Origin: Rhodococcus spongiicola
GTDB taxonomy: Bacteria; Actinomycetota; Actinomycetes; Mycobacteriales; Mycobacteriaceae
DNA length: 64,000 bases
Direction of reading: 5' to 3'
Assembly (NCBI RefSeq): GCF_004011835.1
Contig: NZ_RKLN01000003.1
Span: forward strand, 1 to 64,000
Below, one piece after another: positions 2,625 to 29,497 of this stretch; the first letter of the stretch is position 1, and each line of letters begins with the position of its first letter. The position numbers were made by a program, and so were the translations under genes. The notes under the pieces are model-generated. The model saw only the letters and a list, made by a program, of their open reading frames with translations. It had not been told where the DNA came from and did no database searches.

Positions 2625-3458
2625 GTGGCACGTCGAGCAAGAGTCGATGCGGAGTTGGTGCGGCGGGGGCTTGCGCGCTCACGCGAGCAAGCGGTGGAGT
2701 TGATCTCCGCGGGCCGCGTGCGGATTGCGGGCACCGTTGCGACCAAGCCCGCGACCGCGATCGAGACGGGTACTCCACTTCTCGTCACCGAGCTCGACGA
2801 CGAGATCTCGTGGGCCTCCCGGGGTGCGCACAAGCTGATCGGCGCGCTCGACGCCTTCGTGCCGCAGGGACTGACGGTCGAAGGCCGTAGGTGCCTGGAC
2901 GCGGGCGCCTCCACGGGCGGCTTCACTGACGTCCTACTGCACAACGGTGCGCGCGAGGTGGTTGCGGTCGATGTGGGGTACGGCCAACTGGTGTGGCGTC
3001 TGCAGTCCGACGATCGGGTCCACGTCGTGGACCGGACCAACGTGCGATCAATCGACGCCGACACGATCGGCGGCCCAGTCGATCTCGTGGTGGCCGACTT
3101 GTCGTTCATCTCGCTGAAGTTGGTGTTGCCGGCGCTCGCCGCGTGTGTCGACGCCGGGGCGGACCTGATCCCGATGGTCAAGCCCCAGTTCGAGGTCGGC
3201 AAGGAGCGAGTCGGATCCGGGGGCGTCGTGCGGGATCCGCAGTTGCGCGCGCGTGCCGTGTCGGAGGTTGCCGAGGCGGCCGCGAATCTGGGTCTGCGTA
3301 CCGTCGGAGCCGTCGCGAGCCCCCTTCCGGGCCCGTCCGGCAATGTCGAGTACTTCTTGTGGCTACGCAAGGACGGTGAGCCACTGAGATCCGAACAGGT
3401 GGAGAGCACCTCGATCGAGGCCCTGATCCGTCGGGTGGTTGAGGAAGGTCCCCAGTGA
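2625..3458 (+). CDS. tlyA: 16S/23S rRNA (cytidine-2'-O)-methyltransferase TlyA
   Basis: This 277-residue protein has an N-terminal S4 RNA-binding domain (residues ~1-60, with [21 protein letters not shown]) and a C-terminal FtsJ-type Rossmann methyltransferase. Visible motifs are the SAM loop [15 protein letters not shown], the acidic [10 protein letters not shown], and [10 protein letters not shown], which supplies a catalytic Lys. TlyA 2'-O-methylates rRNA in both ribosomal subunits, and loss of it causes capreomycin/viomycin resistance in mycobacteria. The GTG at 2625 makes the protein start directly at the S4 domain as in homologues. The stop overlaps the NAD kinase start (GTGA). Confidence 0.95.
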
Positions 3459-22190: not shown

Positions 22191-22394
22191 GGCCACACAC
22201 AGGCCCCGCCAGTGCATTGATGGCGGTACGGAACATTGTTCATCCCGCTGGCCGATCATGGATTTGCCTACGCCGATGCCGTGAACGCGTTGCCACGAGG
22301 ATCGCAGGGAAAGCTCGAGTACCGGAGCCCGCCTGGGCGTACCACGCCGGTTAGCTTCGCGAGCACTACCCGCCTGGCCGATCGGCGCTGCACC

Positions 22395-22416
22395 ACCTAT
22401 CCGCGATAGGTACCAT
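22395..22416 (+). promoter_or_regulatory. operator-like inverted repeat over lpqS copy 1 promoter
   Basis: A perfect 7-bp inverted repeat (ACCTATC-CGC-GATAGGT) abuts and overlaps a -10-like TACCAT (22411-22416). The same arrangement, slightly imperfect (CCTATC-TGT-GATCGG then TAGCAT), precedes lpqS copy 2. The layout suits a repressor that blocks RNA polymerase. Mycobacterial lpqS is controlled by the copper sensor RicR, so a CsoR/RicR-type regulator is a reasonable guess. Confidence 0.55.
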
Positions 22417-22482
22417 CGTGAGAACGGGCTAGAAGTGTTTAGCCAGCGAAGCGAACCGGGCATTGCCGGGATCGAGGGCGTT

Positions 22483-22872
22483 GTGAACACGGTTGTACAT
22501 GGTCCGGCGCGGAGGTACCGCGTCGCAGTCCTCGCGGGCGTCCTCCTCGTCCTCAGCGTCATTCTCCAGTGGGGTATCACCACTGCCAGCGCCGGACCTG
22601 ACGTGCATGTGCATGTGCTGTCGGCTTCCTCGACGCCATTGACGCCATTGACCGAGGACGGAGCGCCTGGGCGGGCGCACATCCAAGCCGCGCCGCCGGA
22701 TCGCTTCGATGAACCGCTGTACATCATCGCGGTCCCGCGCAACGCCGACAATTCACCGCGTTTGCCGATGGTCGCTGGTTTCGCTGAGGACCCAATCCGT
22801 TCGGCGGCGGTGGTGGTTGCGGAACCGGCGAGTCCGCGACCACCACCGCATGGGGCGCTACCTATCAGCTAA
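22483..22872 (+). CDS. LpqS-like membrane-anchored protein, copy 1 (C-terminus frameshifted)
   Basis: This 129-residue product starts at GTG 22483 (GAGGG 4 nt upstream) and has one hydrophobic segment (VAVLAGVLLVLSVILQWGIT). A His-containing outer part (DVHVHVLSA, RAHIQAAPP) suggests metal binding. It matches the position and look of LpqS, a copper-induced mycobacterial protein encoded just before cysK2. Compared with copy 2, one base is missing between 22867 and 22880, so the frame ends early (GALPIS) and the conserved ending DICISRC lies in another frame. Either the C-terminus is mutated or the last peptide is translated separately from GTG 22875 (MDVLNDICISRC). Confidence 0.6.
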   Translation: MNTVVHGPARRYRVAVLAGVLLVLSVILQWGITTASAGPDVHVHVLSASSTPLTPLTEDGAPGRAHIQAAPPDRFDEPLYIIAVPRNADNSPRLPMVAGFAEDPIRSAAVVVAEPASPRPPPHGALPIS

Positions 22873-22887
22873 AGGTGGATGTCTTGA

Positions 22888-22939
22888 ACGACATCTGCAT
22901 CAGCAGGTGCTGATCAGTCCTAACAGGCACTGAGCACCC
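22888..22939 (+). promoter_or_regulatory. conserved 52-nt leader/attenuator-like element, copy 1
   Basis: This 52-nt block is identical to 26964-27015 although sequences on both sides differ between copies. It spans codons for DICISRC, the TGA stop (22911-22913), and the start of the leader before cysK2. Two folds compete. Fold A pairs ATCAGCA (22899-22905) with TGCTGAT (22908-22914). Fold B pairs GGTGC (22906-22910) with GCACC (22934-22938), enclosing TCAGTCCT/AGGCACTGA. Ribosome position at the Cys codons or stop would choose between them, which suggests attenuation or translational control of cysK2-MFS. Confidence 0.55.
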
Positions 22940-23025
22940 GTCTTTGGGATCTGGCTTCGCATTGCGCAGCTGCGCAATCAGGCGTGCACAGATCACCCCG
23001 TACTGACGAAATGTAGGGATCACCC

Positions 23026-25421
23026 CATCATGAACTGTGCATCCTCTCTTCTCGCGTCTGCTCTTCCTGACCGTTGCTCGGACCCTTTGGCGTGTGGTGG
23101 GTCCGCGCAACCGGGCAGGTTGGTCGGTAATACACCGGTCCTGTGGATCGGTGCTCCTTTCGCCCGTGATGGTCGCGGATTTTGGGCGAAACTCGAAGGC
23201 TGTAACCCGGGTGGTATGAAGGACCGCCCTGCCCTGCACATGGTCGAGTGTGCCCGGGCGCGTGGTGACCTTGCTCCGGGTGCGATGATCATCGAATCCA
23301 CCAGCGGCACTCTCGGTCTGGGATTGGCGCTGGCCGGCATCGTGCACCATCATCCGGTCACGGTGGTGACCGATCCGGGTATGGAACCGATCATCCACCG
23401 GATGCTGTCGGCCTATGGGGCGACCGTTGTCGTGGTCACGGAGCCTCATCGGGTCGGCGGTTGGCAGCAGGCCCGCCGTGAGAAAGTGCGTGAACTTCTC
23501 GACTTGTATGCCGGGTCGTGGTGTCCGGACCAGTACACCAACCCTGACAATGTTGCGGGTTACGAGCCGCTCGCTACTGAACTGATCGCTCAGCTCGGCC
23601 GGATCGACACTCTGGTTTGTTCGGTGGGCACGGGGGGTCATTCTGCCGGGGTGGCGCGTGGGCTGCGCCGGGTCAACCCGGGGTTGAAGCTGGTCGGGGT
23701 CGATACGGTGGGTTCGACGATCTTCGGCCAGCCCGCGGGGTCGCGGCTGATGCGTGGGCTCGGTTCGAGCATCTATCCGAGCAACGTGGACTATGCGGCC
23801 TTCGACGAGGTGCACTGGGTGGCGCCGCCGGAAGCGGTGTGGTCGTGCCGGGCCTTGGCCGCGACCTGTCATCACGCCAGTGGCGGCTGGAGTGTGGGTG
23901 CGGTGGCGCTGGTGGCGGGGTGGGTCGCCCGTACCAGCGACGAGGGCACCCGGATTGCCGCGATCTTCCCCGACGGTCCCGATCGGTACTTCGACAGCGT
24001 CTACAACGACAGCTACTGCGCCGAGCACGGACTCTTCGGTATCGACGCCCCCAGAGCGCCGGATGTCATTGCGCACCCGACCGAACGGGTCGTCAGGTCC
24101 TGGACACGTTGTACGACCGTGGTCGCTCCCAAGGATCTGTCATGAGACGCCTGGTGGCCGAGTTCCGCAGCTTCGACCGTGCCAGCCGGGTGTTGATGGT
24201 CAACCAGTTCTCCATCAATATCGGCTTCTACATGCTGATGCCGTACCTGGCGGGTTATCTGTCGGGTTCGATCGGGCTGGCGGCATGGGCGGTCGGGCTG
24301 GTGCTCGGTGTCCGGAACTTCTCCCAGCAGGGCCTGTTCCTGGTCGGGGGCACGCTCGCCGACCGGTTGGGGTACAAGCCGCTCATCGTTGCGGGTTGCC
24401 TTCTGCGGGTGGCTGGGTTCGGGCTGCTGGCCGTTGTCCAGTCGTTGCCGGCGATCCTGGTGGCCTCGGCCGCCACTGGGTTCGCCGGTGCACTGTTCAA
24501 CCCTGCCGTTCGTGCCTACCTCGCTGCCGACGCCGGACCCCGACGGGTCGAGGCGTTTGCCGTGTTCAACGTCTTCTACCAGGCCGGAATCCTGCTCGGC
24601 CCGCTGGTCGGGCTGGCACTGACGACGTTGGATTTCCGTATCACCTGCTTGGTGGCGGCGGGGGTGTTCACCGCGTTGACGATCACGCAGATCTGGGCGT
24701 TGCCGGCTGCACGGGTCGATGATGTCCATCAGCCGAACCGGGTGCTGCACGATTGGCGGACGGTGGCAACGAATCGGCCGTTCGTGCTGTTCGCTGTGGC
24801 GATGGTCGGGTCGTACGTTCTGTTGTTCCAGATCTATTTGGCGCTGCCTCTGCAGGCTGCCGTCATCACCGGGGCTGCGTCGTCGACTGCTCTGGTGACC
24901 TCGATCTTCGTCATCTCGTCGCTGGTGGCCATCGCTGGGCAGATGCGGATCACCGCCTGGTTCTCGAAATTATGGGGGCCGCAGCGCAGCTTGGTGATCG
25001 GCATGTCCGTCATGGCAGTTGGCTTCGCGCCGTTGGCAATCGTTCCCGGGACGTCGCCGTTGGGGGTGACTGCCGCGGTGGTGGCTCTGCTGTTGTCGGC
25101 TGGGCTGTTGGCGGTGGGTACCGCGGCGGTGTTTCCGTTCGAGATGGACACCGTTGTCGCGCTGTCGGGTGGGCGGTTGGTCGCCACTCATTACGGGTTC
25201 TACCAAACCGTCGTCGGGATCGGGATCCTGCTGGGCAACCTCGGGACCGGCGCGGTGTTCGGGAGCCTGCAGGCAGCGCAGATGGGCTCGGTGATCTGGG
25301 TGATGTTGATCGCCATCGGCGTGGGCTGCGCCACGGCACTGCACAGGCTCGAGCGTTCGGGACACCTGAGGGCCGCGAAGGTCGAGCCCGGCCACGCAGA
25401 CTCGATCGCAGCCGGCCACAC
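23026..25421 (+). repeat. 2.4-kb direct repeat, copy 1 (cysK2-MFS)
   Basis: From 4 nt before the cysK2 start to 5 nt before the MFS stop, the sequence recurs at 27098-29493 (offset 4072). Both encoded proteins are identical over this span and no nucleotide difference was noticed on reading. Outside it, homology continues but with many substitutions, on both sides. Confidence 0.9.
23030..24145 (+). CDS. cysK2: CysK2-type PLP-dependent S-sulfocysteine/cysteine synthase, copy 1
   Basis: This 371-residue fold-type II PLP enzyme has the Schiff-base lysine K64 in [13 protein letters not shown], the substrate loop [12 protein letters not shown], and the phosphate-binding glycine loop [11 protein letters not shown]. 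Overall it reads like M. tuberculosis Rv0848 (CysK2/Cds1), which makes S-sulfocysteine from O-phosphoserine and thiosulfate and can release sulfide from cysteine. The first 25 residues hold three Cys (C3, C16, C22), an unusual extension. It is followed by the MFS gene with an ATGA overlap and preceded by lpqS, as in the Rv0847-Rv0849 operon. Copy 2 at 27102-28217 encodes the same protein. Confidence 0.9.
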
Positions 25422-25425
25422 GTAG
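24142..25425 (+). CDS. MFS transporter (Rv0849-like), copy 1
   Basis: This 427-residue major facilitator protein has about 10-12 hydrophobic segments and the family motif A region [14 protein letters not shown] between helices 2 and 3. The ATG at 24142 overlaps the cysK2 stop, so longer in-frame starts inside cysK2 are rejected. It corresponds to Rv0849, encoded after cysK2 in mycobacteria. The cargo is unknown; export of a sulfur compound or metal-binding metabolite is inferred only from operon context. The C-terminal residue before the stop is Thr here and Ala in copy 2. Confidence 0.88.
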
Positions 25426-25440
25426 GCCTTGATCACGGGG

Positions 25441-25458
25441 CCCGGCCACCGGGCCGGG
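25441..25458 (+). terminator. GC-rich hairpin after MFS copy 1
   Basis: CCCGGCC and GGCCGGG form a 7-bp stem with a 4-nt loop, 16 nt after the MFS stop and without a T tract. It may terminate or attenuate transcription before the lipoprotein gene. It is missing after MFS copy 2. Confidence 0.5.
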
Positions 25459-25539
25459 TCACCGGTATCGTCGTCTCCGGTTCAGCTGCGTATGTGGTTG
25501 CATGTCCACCGCCCCTCCGAACACGAAACGAGTTCGTCG

Positions 25540-26367
25540 ATGCCCCGCACCCGTGTCCCACGCACCCGTGTCACTGTCTCAATACTGTCGGCGGCCGCAC
25601 TCGTTCTTGTCGGCTGTTCAGGGGCGGGACAGCCGACAACGCCGGAGCCCGCCACCGCCCCGGCAGTGGCGTTGGATACTGCGCTCACCCATGTGCACGG
25701 ACTTCATGTCCGCGCCGATGGAACCGTATTGGCCGGTACCCACACCGGTCTCTACGCCCTCGACTCAGCGGGCGGTACCTCTCGGGTCGGGGACTCGGAC
25801 GACGATTTCATGGGCCTTACAGGAGTACCCGGCACCGACACCCTCTATTCCTCCGGCCATCCCGGCGTATCGAGCGACGCCCCGAATCCGCTTGGGCTGC
25901 GGGGTAGCAACGACGGCGGCACCACCTGGTCCGACCGTTCGCTGGGTGGACAAACGGACTTCCACGCCTTGGCGTCCGACGGACGTCTTCTCGTCGGTTT
26001 CGACGGCGCCGAGGGTCTGGCGGTGTCCACGGACGCCGGTTACAACTGGACGCGAGGAGCATCCGTTGATGCCTATGCCCTGGCTATGACAACCGCGGCT
26101 GTCTGGGCTTTGACCCCGGACGGCTTGATGCGCAGCACGGATGGTGCCCAGTCCTTTGCGGCGGCAGTCGACAGTCCCACGCTGGTGCTGCTGGCCGGCG
26201 CAGGCGACGCTCTGTGGGGCATCGATGCCAGCGGCGACGCCTGGCGCAGTCGTGATGGAGTCGACTGGCAGAAGGTCGACCGGGTTGGTGCGGTCGACGC
26301 GTTGACCGCGGTCGACTACGACACCGCGTACGCCGCGACCAATCAGGCCTTCTTCATTCTCGGCTAG
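25540..26367 (+). CDS. lipoprotein with BNR/sialidase-like beta-propeller (F510_1955 type)
   Basis: This 275-residue exported lipoprotein has an n-region rich in Arg (MPRTRVPRTRV), a hydrophobic stretch and the lipobox LVGC, Cys being the lipidation site. The mature part begins with a His-containing segment (LTHVHGLHVRADG) and contains Asp-box-like repeats (SNDGGTTWSD, STDAGYNWTR, SRDGVDWQKV) of a beta-propeller. Such proteins are labelled glycosylhydrolase by similarity, but enzymatic activity is unproven. It follows the duplicated cysK2-MFS unit; a 48-nt remnant of a second copy lies at 29552-29599. Confidence 0.8.
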   Translation: MPRTRVPRTRVTVSILSAAALVLVGCSGAGQPTTPEPATAPAVALDTALTHVHGLHVRADGTVLAGTHTGLYALDSAGGTSRVGDSDDDFMGLTGVPGTDTLYSSGHPGVSSDAPNPLGLRGSNDGGTTWSDRSLGGQTDFHALASDGRLLVGFDGAEGLAVSTDAGYNWTRGASVDAYALAMTTAAVWALTPDGLMRSTDGAQSFAAAVDSPTLVLLAGAGDALWGIDASGDAWRSRDGVDWQKVDRVGAVDALTAVDYDTAYAATNQAFFILG

Positions 26368-26475
26368 CTGCCTGCTGCGTGGTGGTCAACCGCGGAGAAA
26401 TGGTTGTTACGGCGCCGCATGGCGGGCGATCCGAGACATCGCGAGCTACCGACCTGGCCGATCGGCGCGACGCCG

Positions 26476-26496
26476 CCTATCTGTGATCGGTAGCAT
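26476..26496 (+). promoter_or_regulatory. operator-like inverted repeat over lpqS copy 2 promoter
   Basis: An imperfect inverted repeat CCTATC-TGT-GATCGG is followed by the -10-like TAGCAT (26491-26496). It aligns with 22395-22416, and the sequence between it and the lpqS start (for example CGGGCATTGCCGGGATCGAG) is also conserved. Confidence 0.5.
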
Positions 26497-26563
26497 CGTG
26501 TGTACGGGCTAGAGATCATCGAGCCAGCTAAGCGAACCGGGCATTGCCGGGATCGAGGGCGTT

Positions 26564-26989
26564 GTGAACACGATTGCACTTGGTCCGGCGCGGACGGGGA
26601 ACCGCGTCGCAGCCCTCGCTGGCCTCCTTCTCGCCTTGGGCATCATTCTCCAGGGCGGTATCACCATCATGAGCGCCGGCCCTGCCACGCATGTGCATGT
26701 GCAGTCGGTGTTCTCGACGCCATCGACCGAAGAGGGAGCGCCTGGGCATACCCACATCCAGGCCATGTCCCCGGCCCCCTCCAATGAACCGATGGCCGTC
26801 GTGGCGATGCCGCGCGACGACGGCAAACTACTGCGTTCGGCGATCGTCGCGGTTCTTGCTGTGGGCGCAATCGGTTCGGCGGCGATATTGATCGCGGCAC
26901 CGGGGATTCCGCGGCCGCGATCGCCTGCGGCGCTACCTATCCGGCATGGCCGCATGGTCTTGCACGACATCTGCATCAGCAGGTGCTGA
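26564..26989 (+). CDS. LpqS-like membrane-anchored protein, copy 2
   Basis: This 141-residue protein begins at GTG 26564 with GAGGG 4 nt upstream. It has an N-terminal hydrophobic segment (VAALAGLLLALGIILQGGIT), a His-bearing segment (ATHVHVQS, GHTHIQAM), a second hydrophobic stretch (IVAVLAVGAIGSAAILIAAP), and the C-terminal motif VLHDICISRC. The His and Cys residues suit copper binding. It is clearly paralogous to copy 1 but diverged, and here the frame is open to the conserved Cys-rich end. It resembles mycobacterial LpqS by position, size and C-terminal style; no lipobox is evident. Confidence 0.65.
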   Translation: MNTIALGPARTGNRVAALAGLLLALGIILQGGITIMSAGPATHVHVQSVFSTPSTEEGAPGHTHIQAMSPAPSNEPMAVVAMPRDDGKLLRSAIVAVLAVGAIGSAAILIAAPGIPRPRSPAALPIRHGRMVLHDICISRC

Positions 26990-27015
26990 TCAGTCCTAAC
27001 AGGCACTGAGCACCC
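26964..27015 (+). promoter_or_regulatory. conserved 52-nt leader/attenuator-like element, copy 2
   Basis: This block is identical to 22888-22939. Here it includes the in-frame 3' end of lpqS copy 2 and its TGA (26987-26989). Fold A arms are 26975-26981 and 26984-26990; the outer arms of fold B are 26982-26986 and 27010-27014. A ~85-nt diverged leader then leads to cysK2 copy 2. Confidence 0.55.
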
Positions 27016-27097
27016 ATCCTTGGGGCCTGATTCTGTGTTGCGCTGCTCGCAGTCAGATACGTAGGACCACCCTGTTTGAAAGAAATGTCGGGGGCAC

Positions 27098-29493
27098 CAT
27101 CATGAACTGTGCATCCTCTCTTCTCGCGTCTGCTCTTCCTGACCGTTGCTCGGACCCTTTGGCGTGTGGTGGGTCCGCGCAACCGGGCAGGTTGGTCGGT
27201 AATACACCGGTCCTGTGGATCGGTGCTCCTTTCGCCCGTGATGGTCGCGGATTTTGGGCGAAACTCGAAGGCTGTAACCCGGGTGGTATGAAGGACCGCC
27301 CTGCCCTGCACATGGTCGAGTGTGCCCGGGCGCGTGGTGACCTTGCTCCGGGTGCGATGATCATCGAATCCACCAGCGGCACTCTCGGTCTGGGATTGGC
27401 GCTGGCCGGCATCGTGCACCATCATCCGGTCACGGTGGTGACCGATCCGGGTATGGAACCGATCATCCACCGGATGCTGTCGGCCTATGGGGCGACCGTT
27501 GTCGTGGTCACGGAGCCTCATCGGGTCGGCGGTTGGCAGCAGGCCCGCCGTGAGAAAGTGCGTGAACTTCTCGACTTGTATGCCGGGTCGTGGTGTCCGG
27601 ACCAGTACACCAACCCTGACAATGTTGCGGGTTACGAGCCGCTCGCTACTGAACTGATCGCTCAGCTCGGCCGGATCGACACTCTGGTTTGTTCGGTGGG
27701 CACGGGGGGTCATTCTGCCGGGGTGGCGCGTGGGCTGCGCCGGGTCAACCCGGGGTTGAAGCTGGTCGGGGTCGATACGGTGGGTTCGACGATCTTCGGC
27801 CAGCCCGCGGGGTCGCGGCTGATGCGTGGGCTCGGTTCGAGCATCTATCCGAGCAACGTGGACTATGCGGCCTTCGACGAGGTGCACTGGGTGGCGCCGC
27901 CGGAAGCGGTGTGGTCGTGCCGGGCCTTGGCCGCGACCTGTCATCACGCCAGTGGCGGCTGGAGTGTGGGTGCGGTGGCGCTGGTGGCGGGGTGGGTCGC
28001 CCGTACCAGCGACGAGGGCACCCGGATTGCCGCGATCTTCCCCGACGGTCCCGATCGGTACTTCGACAGCGTCTACAACGACAGCTACTGCGCCGAGCAC
28101 GGACTCTTCGGTATCGACGCCCCCAGAGCGCCGGATGTCATTGCGCACCCGACCGAACGGGTCGTCAGGTCCTGGACACGTTGTACGACCGTGGTCGCTC
28201 CCAAGGATCTGTCATGAGACGCCTGGTGGCCGAGTTCCGCAGCTTCGACCGTGCCAGCCGGGTGTTGATGGTCAACCAGTTCTCCATCAATATCGGCTTC
28301 TACATGCTGATGCCGTACCTGGCGGGTTATCTGTCGGGTTCGATCGGGCTGGCGGCATGGGCGGTCGGGCTGGTGCTCGGTGTCCGGAACTTCTCCCAGC
28401 AGGGCCTGTTCCTGGTCGGGGGCACGCTCGCCGACCGGTTGGGGTACAAGCCGCTCATCGTTGCGGGTTGCCTTCTGCGGGTGGCTGGGTTCGGGCTGCT
28501 GGCCGTTGTCCAGTCGTTGCCGGCGATCCTGGTGGCCTCGGCCGCCACTGGGTTCGCCGGTGCACTGTTCAACCCTGCCGTTCGTGCCTACCTCGCTGCC
28601 GACGCCGGACCCCGACGGGTCGAGGCGTTTGCCGTGTTCAACGTCTTCTACCAGGCCGGAATCCTGCTCGGCCCGCTGGTCGGGCTGGCACTGACGACGT
28701 TGGATTTCCGTATCACCTGCTTGGTGGCGGCGGGGGTGTTCACCGCGTTGACGATCACGCAGATCTGGGCGTTGCCGGCTGCACGGGTCGATGATGTCCA
28801 TCAGCCGAACCGGGTGCTGCACGATTGGCGGACGGTGGCAACGAATCGGCCGTTCGTGCTGTTCGCTGTGGCGATGGTCGGGTCGTACGTTCTGTTGTTC
28901 CAGATCTATTTGGCGCTGCCTCTGCAGGCTGCCGTCATCACCGGGGCTGCGTCGTCGACTGCTCTGGTGACCTCGATCTTCGTCATCTCGTCGCTGGTGG
29001 CCATCGCTGGGCAGATGCGGATCACCGCCTGGTTCTCGAAATTATGGGGGCCGCAGCGCAGCTTGGTGATCGGCATGTCCGTCATGGCAGTTGGCTTCGC
29101 GCCGTTGGCAATCGTTCCCGGGACGTCGCCGTTGGGGGTGACTGCCGCGGTGGTGGCTCTGCTGTTGTCGGCTGGGCTGTTGGCGGTGGGTACCGCGGCG
29201 GTGTTTCCGTTCGAGATGGACACCGTTGTCGCGCTGTCGGGTGGGCGGTTGGTCGCCACTCATTACGGGTTCTACCAAACCGTCGTCGGGATCGGGATCC
29301 TGCTGGGCAACCTCGGGACCGGCGCGGTGTTCGGGAGCCTGCAGGCAGCGCAGATGGGCTCGGTGATCTGGGTGATGTTGATCGCCATCGGCGTGGGCTG
29401 CGCCACGGCACTGCACAGGCTCGAGCGTTCGGGACACCTGAGGGCCGCGAAGGTCGAGCCCGGCCACGCAGACTCGATCGCAGCCGGCCACGC
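27098..29493 (+). repeat. 2.4-kb direct repeat, copy 2 (cysK2-MFS)
   Basis: This is the second copy of 23026-25421 with essentially perfect identity. The pair could recombine, deleting or amplifying the 4.07-kb unit between them. Confidence 0.9.
27102..28217 (+). CDS. cysK2: CysK2-type PLP-dependent synthase, copy 2
   Basis: This 371-residue protein is identical to the product of 23030-24145, with the same PLP lysine K64, STSGTLG loop and GTGGHSAG loop. Two copies should raise enzyme dosage without new specificity. It overlaps the following MFS gene (ATGA). The upstream leader is related to, but different from, that of copy 1, so the two copies could be induced differently. Confidence 0.9.
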
Positions 29494-29497
29494 ATAG
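28214..29497 (+). CDS. MFS transporter (Rv0849-like), copy 2
   Basis: This 427-residue transporter is identical to copy 1 except for the last residue (Ala instead of Thr), where the repeat ends. It starts at ATG 28214 inside the cysK2 stop. After the stop the sequence runs directly into a lipoprotein-gene remnant rather than an intact lipoprotein gene. Confidence 0.88.

What the first reader, a model, noticed from the sequence alone, without database searches (positions are those of the whole stretch)
22888..22939. 52-nt element with competing hairpins, identical in both lpqS copies, possibly a Cys-codon attenuator for cysK2
Seen directly: 22888-22939 and 26964-27015 are identical, although the lpqS coding sequence before and the leader after them differ between copies. 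The block encodes DICISRC plus stop and can form two mutually exclusive stems: ATCAGCA/TGCTGAT around the second Cys codon and stop, or GGTGC...GCACC enclosing TCAGTCCT/AGGCACTGA. Known: actinobacteria use Cys-containing leader peptides to attenuate sulfur genes, and lpqS-cysK2 is a copper-responsive operon in mycobacteria. Inference: ribosome stalling at the Cys codons, or termination at the stop, selects the fold and tunes cysK2-MFS expression to cysteine or copper.
Basis: partly seen in the sequence, partly recalled or inferred. Interest (0 to 1): 0.82.

Follow-up and report, generated by a model that had tools for sequence, protein, structure and literature searches.

The report
Copper-gene leader with RBS-masking tail codons
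The flagged 52 bases are the last codons of a small copper-linked exported protein, LpqS, plus the start of the leader before the next gene; in relatives those codons can pair with the region just before that gene, so LpqS probably acts as a leader peptide that controls its translation, while the specific hairpins first proposed are not conserved.

Summary
The 52-nt identity is exact, but the reading changes. The block holds the C-terminal codons of LpqS (NF052429) and the start of the lpqS-cysK2 leader. Its exact identity looks like a gene-conversion patch over a constrained tail. In copy 1 lpqS is frameshifted and stops before the block.

Of 188 CysK2-orthologue junctions, 152 have an upstream ORF ending in a conserved tail (GR..L..[FL]C[IV].R[RC]*), against 0 of 21 CysK2 paralogues; control windows give 5 and 1 of 188. 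In 64 aligned junctions the Phe/Leu-Cys-Ile codons pair with a GATACAG-type sequence about 10 nt before the cysK2 start, with covariation, as does a second hairpin. Sister contrasts support the tail-leader pairing (24 vs 7, p=0.003).

Best reading: LpqS is a copper-sensing nascent-chain leader working like proteobacterial CutF/CruR; a ribosome on the tail opens the cysK2 ribosome-binding site. The RNA helix is supported; arrest, copper input and sign are inferred. The window's own copies are derived and lack the canonical helix.

The parts
26564..26989 (+). lpqS copy 2: exported/membrane protein with HVHV and HTH (His-Thr-His) motifs, ends GRMVLHDICISRC*; start codon uncertain (GTG)
   Evidence: ORF; NF052429 LpqS 51.5 bits (cut-off 35) to the last profile position; two hydrophobic stretches
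26948..26989 (+). conserved LpqS C-terminal tail codons GRMVLHDICISRC plus UGA
   Evidence: family motif
26964..27015 (+). 52-nt block, copy 2: last 26 nt of lpqS incl. stop plus first 26 nt of the cysK2 leader
   Evidence: exact match to copy 1
26955..26963 (+). 5' strand of a predicted long-range helix in copy 2 (TGGTCTTGC), lineage-specific place; weak
   Evidence: MFE fold; its 8-bp core is not significant by shuffles (p=0.19)
27061..27069 (+). 3' strand of that helix (GTAGGACCA)
26990..27101 (+). lpqS-cysK2 leader, copy 2
27102..28217 (+). cysK2 copy 2 (PALP family; cysteine-synthase-like)
28214..29497 (+). MFS transporter copy 2, overlaps the cysK2 stop (ATGA)
22483..22872 (+). lpqS copy 1 from the GTG that matches copy 2's start (the ORF is open from GTG 22435); frameshifted, stops before the tail, second hydrophobic stretch weak
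   Evidence: 18.7 bits, positions 2-110 only; hydropathy 1.11 vs 2.59
22875..22913 (+). 12-codon GTG ORF carrying the tail MDVLNDICISRC* in copy 1
   Evidence: sequence; translation
22888..22939 (+). 52-nt block, copy 1
22914..23029 (+). leader between the tail ORF and cysK2, copy 1
23030..24145 (+). cysK2 copy 1, identical to copy 2
24142..25425 (+). MFS transporter copy 1 (family searched on copy 2 only; the two are identical to 25419)
22395..22411 (+). perfect palindrome ACCTATCCGCGATAGGT upstream of lpqS copy 1, possible copper-repressor operator (label recalled)
26475..26491 (+). weaker copy of that palindrome (2 mismatches) upstream of lpqS copy 2

Best explanation
LpqS is a copper-linked regulatory leader protein whose C-terminal codons have two jobs. 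As RNA, the codons for Phe/Leu-Cys-Ile pair with a segment overlapping or next to the cysK2 ribosome-binding site; this long-range helix, with a second conserved hairpin, keeps cysK2 (and the coupled MFS gene) poorly translated. As peptide, the tail, preceded in most relatives of this and neighbouring genera by R[GAS]PP about 21 residues from the end and often by a second membrane stretch just leaving the exit tunnel, makes the ribosome pause near the stop codon. A ribosome on the tail covers the pairing codons and frees the cysK2 start. By analogy with CutF, copper at the extracytoplasmic His motifs slows export, prolongs the pause and turns cysK2 on, giving an AND gate with copper-responsive transcription. 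Shown here (computed): tail conservation, helix and hairpin covariation, association with CysK2. Inferred: pausing, copper input, sign of the effect. The window's copies are derived: copy 2 keeps the tail and membrane layout but not the canonical helix; copy 1 is frameshifted.
For: Tail motif at 152 of 188 CysK2-orthologue junctions, 0 of 21 paralogues, 5 of 188 in the next window upstream and 1 of 188 on the other strand. Picked by R[GAS]PP 17-22 aa before the end alone, 106 ORFs in 106 loci have Arg at -2 in 106, Leu at -9 in 105, Cys at -5 in 96. Helix: 79.9% paired, covariation 0.191 vs 0.139+-0.010 in shuffles (0/500), slid versions at most 0.100. The synonymous Cys third base tracks its partner (T-A 36, T-G 4, C-A 4, C-G 13). 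Downstream hairpin 0.323 vs 0.191+-0.012. Sister contrasts 24 vs 7 with 13 ties, p=0.0033; controls 16 vs 22 and 24 vs 17. L111: Gly GGT for Cys TGT with GATACCG for GATACAG; L049 (11 bp) and L081 (10 bp) have helices of other sequence, L008 and L069 (12 bp) extended ones. In 15 tailless orthologues GATRCAG is absent from 300 nt (0 of 15; 30 of 88 tailed have it in the last 45 nt), and L062, L067, L122 read GGAG there. Of 88 LpqS, 87 have a first and 67 also a second hydrophobic stretch, the latter ending a median 32 aa from the C-terminus.
Against: No arrest, copper or reporter data. In the window's own copies the canonical helix is absent, the predicted substitute is not significant (p=0.19), copy 2 has RSPA in place of R[GAS]PP, and blocking the tail lowers its computed start accessibility (0.71 to 0.60). 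Over 77 junctions accessibility rose in 44 and fell in 9, with no shuffle control. Only 38 of 88 (ungapped, base shuffles) and 62 of 153 (duplex) reach p<0.05 alone. For the helix the stricter measures are weaker: pairs with double changes 72/500, further pair types 7/500. Single-pair tests corrected for descent are underpowered. L104 has GATACCG with an unchanged Cys TGT, a mismatch. RNAalifold on the whole alignment gave no structure. The helix over the stop codon does not covary. UGA is not special: 81/88 vs 70/73 for cysK2. R[GAS]PP is missing in 41 of 107 proteins.
Confidence: 0.55

Rival explanations
1. Plain translational coupling: any ribosome finishing lpqS melts the helix and lets cysK2 be read. 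No arrest and no sensing; the peptide tail is conserved for some other LpqS function.
For: Helix and hairpin covariation need no arrest. The UGA stop is ordinary. Three similar tailless loci show GGAG in place of GCAG.
Against: Does not explain R[GAS]PP at a nearly fixed distance (18-21 aa from the end in 65 of the 66 proteins that have it), Arg at -2 in 106 of 106 ORFs picked without asking for it, or the similar tails of DUF6153 proteins (19 of 30 end LC[VLI][LMS]R[TIV]*).
Confidence: 0.25
2. Cysteine-codon attenuator: scarcity of Cys-tRNA stalls the ribosome on DICISRC and selects between two local hairpins.
For: The tail holds one or two Cys codons; Cys at -5 in 79 of 88; the downstream protein is cysteine-synthase-like. 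Cys leader peptides exist in mycobacteria (recalled).
Against: Both Cys in 16 of 88, last residue mostly Arg; Gly or Ser replaces the first Cys in 9 of 88, several with a helix kept in another form; the named stems do no better than controls; no terminator-like site; LpqS is a full exported protein.
Confidence: 0.05
3. CruR-like transcription control: a ribosome paused on the tail shields the leader from Rho, so the structure mainly governs termination before cysK2.
For: CruR works this way in Bordetella with a RAPP motif (PMC9426467, abstract and passages). Leaders are long enough for it: median 104.5 nt in 88.
Against: The covarying helix sits just before the cysK2 start; the leader segment upstream of it shows no such coupling (16 vs 22). 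No DUF2946 match. Rho sites were not tested.
Confidence: 0.12
4. The 52-nt identity is only a gene-conversion patch with no function of its own.
For: In the block the two copies share 4 states against L004 and differ at 0, while in the lpqS body copy 2 sides with L004 at 72 sites; cysK2 shows the same conversion pattern (153 vs 0).
Against: The 26 nt of tail plus stop are also identical in L004 (26/26) and the tail is conserved widely. True for the exact identity, not for the element.
Confidence: 0.03

Closest known systems
CutF (Rhodobacter capsulatus), copper-sensing nascent exported protein upstream of cutO (PMC9973294; abstract, sections 10 and 12, one term search)
   Same: Small exported protein with a metal motif, conserved C-terminus, downstream copper gene, RNA structure over the ribosome-binding site.
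   Different: R[GAS]PP lies about 21 aa from the LpqS end, so LpqS fails the CutF filter (PP within the last 15); here the masking strand is the leader protein's own codons. The paper's main text holds none of the terms LpqS, Mycobacteri, Rhodococcus, Streptomyces.
CruR / DUF2946 (Bordetella), copper-responsive uORF (PMC9426467; abstract and passages)
   Same: Exported uORF protein with a metal motif and a RAPP-type motif heading a copper operon.
   Different: RAPP lies three residues before the end; CXXC sensor; Rho-dependent output. The LpqS proteins tested do not match DUF2946.
RAPP/RGPP arrest peptides upstream of sec and yidC genes (PMC10987492; passages)
   Same: RAPP/RGPP motif in exported leader proteins.
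   Different: Those control protein-localization genes; most E. coli and B. subtilis proteins tested there with RAPP-like motifs did not arrest well, so the motif alone proves nothing.
LpqS (NCBIfam NF052429), RicR-regulon protein of mycobacteria
   Same: Family membership by profile for copy 2 and for relatives.
   Different: Named 'putative copper homeostasis (lipo)protein'; no regulatory leader role seen in the listings and passages.
DUF6153 (PF19650) proteins
   Same: Small proteins; 19 of 30 loci end LC[VLI][LMS]R[TIV]*; a DUF6153-like one in this genome precedes a likely multicopper oxidase, with a 9-bp tail-leader helix (p=0.016, post hoc).
   Different: Different family; covariation not tested.

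Membership tests
LpqS (NF052429) | Profile score above the curated 35 bits | tested here: met
   Copy 2 51.5 bits, L003 88.3; copy 1 not met, 18.7
[quoted passage not shown]
   R[GAS]PP ends 18-21 aa before the C-terminus in 65 of the 66 LpqS that have it, one at 12; window copy 2 has RSPA and no PP there
CutF-like proteins (PMC9973294 rules) | Under 150 aa with an N-terminal signal/hydrophobic stretch | tested here: met
   Copy 2 141 aa with an N-terminal hydrophobic stretch; 87 of 88 relatives have one. Starts are uncertain and some relatives run longer
CutF-like proteins (PMC9973294 rules) | Copper-dependent translation of the next gene | not testable with these tools
   Needs reporters
CruR / DUF2946 | Pfam DUF2946 match with CXXC and RAPP near the end | tested here: not met
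   No DUF2946 hit for the window copies at E<=10 or for five relatives at E<=1
RAPP-type arrest peptides | RAPP-like motif shown to stall the ribosome | tested here: inconclusive
   R[GAS]PP in 66 of 107 LpqS, not in window copy 2; stalling not testable
Cysteine leader-peptide attenuators | Short leader ORF rich in Cys codons before sulfur genes (features recalled) | tested here: not met
   ~140-aa protein; two tail Cys in only 16 of 88
Classical terminator attenuation | Intrinsic terminator competing with an antiterminator | tested here: not met
   0 terminator-like sites at both copies by a simple scan; named stems no better than controls
Known Rfam RNA families | Covariance-model match | tested here: not met
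   0 matches at E<=1 in 22300-27200

The most novel reading that the evidence does not exclude
Actinobacteria carry a widespread class of copper-sensing arrest leader proteins (LpqS before cysK2, DUF6153 proteins before lipoprotein and multicopper-oxidase genes) whose last codons double as an anti-ribosome-binding-site strand, so one stretch of sequence is at once arrest peptide, metal-sensor readout and RNA mask. The mycobacterial 'lipoprotein' LpqS would be a regulator, not an effector.
Probability: 0.4. Interest if true: 0.82.

Novelty: new variant of a known kind. Interest (0 to 1): 0.66.

Why it matters
LpqS is a copper-regulated protein with no settled function in mycobacteria and relatives. 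If it is a nascent-chain copper sensor, an unexplained member of a well-studied copper regulon gets a concrete, testable role, post-transcriptional copper control of the CutF/CruR kind extends to an actinobacterial operon, and a dual-use coding tail (peptide signal plus ribosome-site mask) can be tested with one synonymous codon change and its matching partner.

Tried and rejected
Hairpin over the stop codon (CGCUGA-UCGG-UCAGCG): conserved but no covariation, so not claimed. UGA as a release-factor signal: rejected, cysK2 uses UGA as often (81/88 vs 70/73). RNAalifold on the whole alignment: empty. Duplex folding with the most upstream start codon: some starts were mis-set; replaced by the start nearest a 105-nt leader, chosen without scoring pairing but after I had seen the GATACAG pairing. 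Single-pair independent contrasts: right direction, too few. Rfam: nothing. Intrinsic terminators: none. No covariance model was built and no structure was predicted.

A circularity that I found on checking: the sets were picked with a pattern that asks for Arg or Lys at -2 and, for the main rows, Leu or Ser at -9, so their counts at those places are no evidence of conservation. One search repeats the count on ORFs picked by R[GAS]PP alone (Arg at -2 in 106 of 106) or by G[RQH] at -13/-12 alone (143 of 148). The long-range helix was first seen by eye in these sequences, so slid controls lean towards it.

Rows dropped: one search kept 80 of 483 relatives; 210 distinct junctions remain of 237 loci, many from close relatives; one with under 400 nt upstream was left out. 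108 were kept at 86% similarity or less, of 153 with tail and start. Of the 78 core rows (pattern complete, 120-175 nt), 63 (window copy 2 among them) were aligned plus window copy 1, leaving out distant families. Of the 36 orthologues without the strict pattern about 20 carry variant tails by eye (such as LSLHCIARR); 15 without a tail were looked at, several of them close relatives of each other.

Full report
What was checked. The two 52-nt blocks are exactly identical at the stated coordinates. They lie at the end of lpqS in a tandem lpqS-cysK2-MFS duplication; the cysK2-MFS part is identical over 2395 nt while the lpqS bodies are 74% alike (293/396). A third lpqS-cysK2 locus exists in the same genome (L003), with LpqS ending VLNELCINRC*.

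Why the blocks are identical. Compared with a near relative (L004, Rhodococcus xishaensis), copy 2 sides with L004 against copy 1 at 72 sites of the lpqS body and at 25 sites of the following leader. In the block this number is 0, and the two copies share 4 states against L004. cysK2 shows the same pattern at 153 sites. The exact identity is therefore best read as a short gene-conversion patch. The 26 nt of tail and stop are the same in all three (26/26), which fits constraint on the tail itself.

What the block encodes. Copy 2 LpqS matches NF052429 at 51.5 bits, to the end of the profile. Copy 1 lpqS is frameshifted, stops before the block and scores 18.7 bits without the tail; its second hydrophobic stretch is weak (1.11 vs 2.59 on the Kyte-Doolittle scale). 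A 12-codon GTG ORF there still spells MDVLNDICISRC.

The family. CysK2 was used as anchor: 80 of 483 loci from named genomes, loci from searches of 301, 397 and 394 genomes that overlap and fetched regions gave 237 loci and 210 distinct junctions. With the strict pattern, 152 of 188 orthologues (at least 60% identity) have an upstream ORF ending in the tail motif, and 0 of 21 paralogues. The same pattern hits 5 of 188 in the next 240 nt upstream and 1 of 188 on the other strand. The pattern itself asks for some of the residues, so conservation was counted on ORFs picked otherwise: of 106 picked only by R[GAS]PP 17-22 residues before the end, 106 have Arg at -2, 105 Leu at -9, 105 Gly at -13, 96 Cys at -5 and 71 Arg at -1. 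In the alignment Arg at -2 is spelt with all six Arg codons, which points to selection on the peptide. Among 107 proteins, 83 have HxH and 66 have R[GAS]PP near the end; of those 66, 53 have it exactly 21 residues from the end, 12 at 18-20 and one at 12. Of 88, 87 have a first and 67 also a second hydrophobic stretch, the second ending a median 32 residues from the C-terminus. That is about the length of the ribosome exit tunnel (general knowledge).

The RNA. In alignment A2 the codons for Phe/Leu-Cys-Ile pair with a segment ending about 10 nt before the cysK2 start. Pairing is 79.9% of cells; covariation is 0.191 against 0.139 in shuffles (0/500) and at most 0.100 when slid. Two stricter measures are weaker: pairs with double changes 6 (72/500 shuffles reach it) and further pair types 20 (7/500). 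A hairpin after the stop codon covaries more strongly (0.323 vs 0.191; pairs 30/500, types 0/500). A helix over the stop codon does not. The synonymous Cys third base follows its partner (36/4/4/13, Fisher 1.6e-6, not corrected for descent). Corrected for descent, single pairs have too few contrasts, but whole-helix contrasts between tree neighbours (quick tree of 120-aa CysK2 pieces, 88 tips) give 24 for, 7 against, 13 ties, p=0.0033; control segments give 16/22 and 24/17. Own tail-leader pairing beats swapped leaders (19.6 vs 16.2, n=88), not corrected for descent. Single cases stand out: L111 (Gly GGT with GATACCG), L049 (11 bp, shifted upstream), L081 (10 bp), L069 and L008 (12 bp, extended). 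Against them, L104 has GATACCG with an unchanged Cys codon. In 15 tailless orthologues GATRCAG is absent from the 300 nt before the anchor, while 30 of 88 tailed ones have it in the last 45 nt; three similar tailless mycobacterial loci read GGAG where relatives have GCAG.

Results against. The window's copies lack this helix. Copy 2 has a predicted 9-bp substitute further upstream that is not significant (8-bp core p=0.19), and RSPA in place of RxPP. Only 38 of 88 junctions pass p<0.05 alone, 62 of 153 in the earlier duplex test. Accessibility modelling is mixed (rise in 44, fall in 9 of 77, fall in copy 2, no shuffle control). UGA use is ordinary.

Generality. LpqS with the tail also precedes a multicopper oxidase in two genomes (L269, L270; Pfam domains tested for L269 only) and what look by eye like PE/PPE genes in L268 and L274 (the L274 protein scores 19.3 bits, below the cut-off). 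In this genome a DUF6153-like protein (21.1 bits, below the 27.7 cut-off) ending RGPPSPGIDVLRLKCVLRT* precedes an ORF that looks by eye like a Tat-type multicopper oxidase (not searched), and its Lys-Cys-Val codons pair over 9 bp with the segment before an SD-like GGAG (p=0.016, post hoc). Of 30 DUF6153 loci, 19 end LC[VLI][LMS]R[TIV]* (9 of them exactly LCVLR[TIV]*), 5 end otherwise, and in 6 my script took another frame; several are followed by lipoprotein ORFs that look like DUF305 (name recalled, not searched).

How it most likely works. The helix masks the cysK2 ribosome-binding site; a ribosome held on the tail frees it. That the ribosome is held, and that copper sets how long, is inferred from CutF and CruR (PMC9973294 abstract and sections 10 and 12; PMC9426467 abstract and passages) and from the protein layout. 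In M. tuberculosis lpqS is reported as copper-induced and a RicR target (PMC8131098, passages), and cysK2 is listed in the RicR regulon (PMC10470581, passages).

Known or new. In what was seen of the papers found (listings, and passages of five papers; open-licence PMC only) none describes LpqS as a leader peptide or this RNA. By the CutF rules LpqS fails one feature (PP within 15 residues), and the proteins tested do not match DUF2946, so it is filed as working like CutF/CruR, not as a member.

Noticed in passing
L275 (own genome G000:C24:82000-86000), minus strand, about 2750-3380: DUF6153-like protein ending RGPPSPGIDVLRLKCVLRT* before a likely Tat multicopper oxidase; tail codons GAAGTGTGT pair over 9 bp with ACACACTTC just before an SD-like GGAG (p=0.016, post hoc).
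   Followed up: partly
L282-L311: 19 of 30 DUF6153 loci end LC[VLI][LMS]R[TIV]*, several before DUF305-like lipoprotein ORFs (by eye); a possible second family of the same regulatory kind.
   Followed up: partly
L269 and L270: LpqS with tail sits before a multicopper oxidase; in L269 a cysK2-like leader (GATACAGGG...GTGAATAATGCAG) remains between them.
   Followed up: no
L268 (3161-3631, minus orientation) and L274: LpqS-type tails before what look like PE/PPE genes, in L268 as a second LpqS after the MFS gene.
   Followed up: no
L062, L067, L122: CysK2 orthologues without the LpqS tail read GATGGAGAAGCGAC where tailed relatives read GATGCAGAAGCGAC, as if a stronger Shine-Dalgarno replaced the pairing strand.
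   Followed up: partly
22395-22411 and 22860-22876: Palindrome ACCTATCCGCGATAGGT upstream of lpqS copy 1; a one-mismatch copy ACCTATCAGCTAAAGGT at the premature lpqS stop. Six matches at up to 3 mismatches in the window is near chance (30 of 100 shuffles), but the perfect one is not explained.
   Followed up: no
25540-26367: F510_1955 family glycosylhydrolase (NF045728, 200 bits) between the two units; a similar-looking protein follows the oxidase in L269/L270.
   Followed up: no
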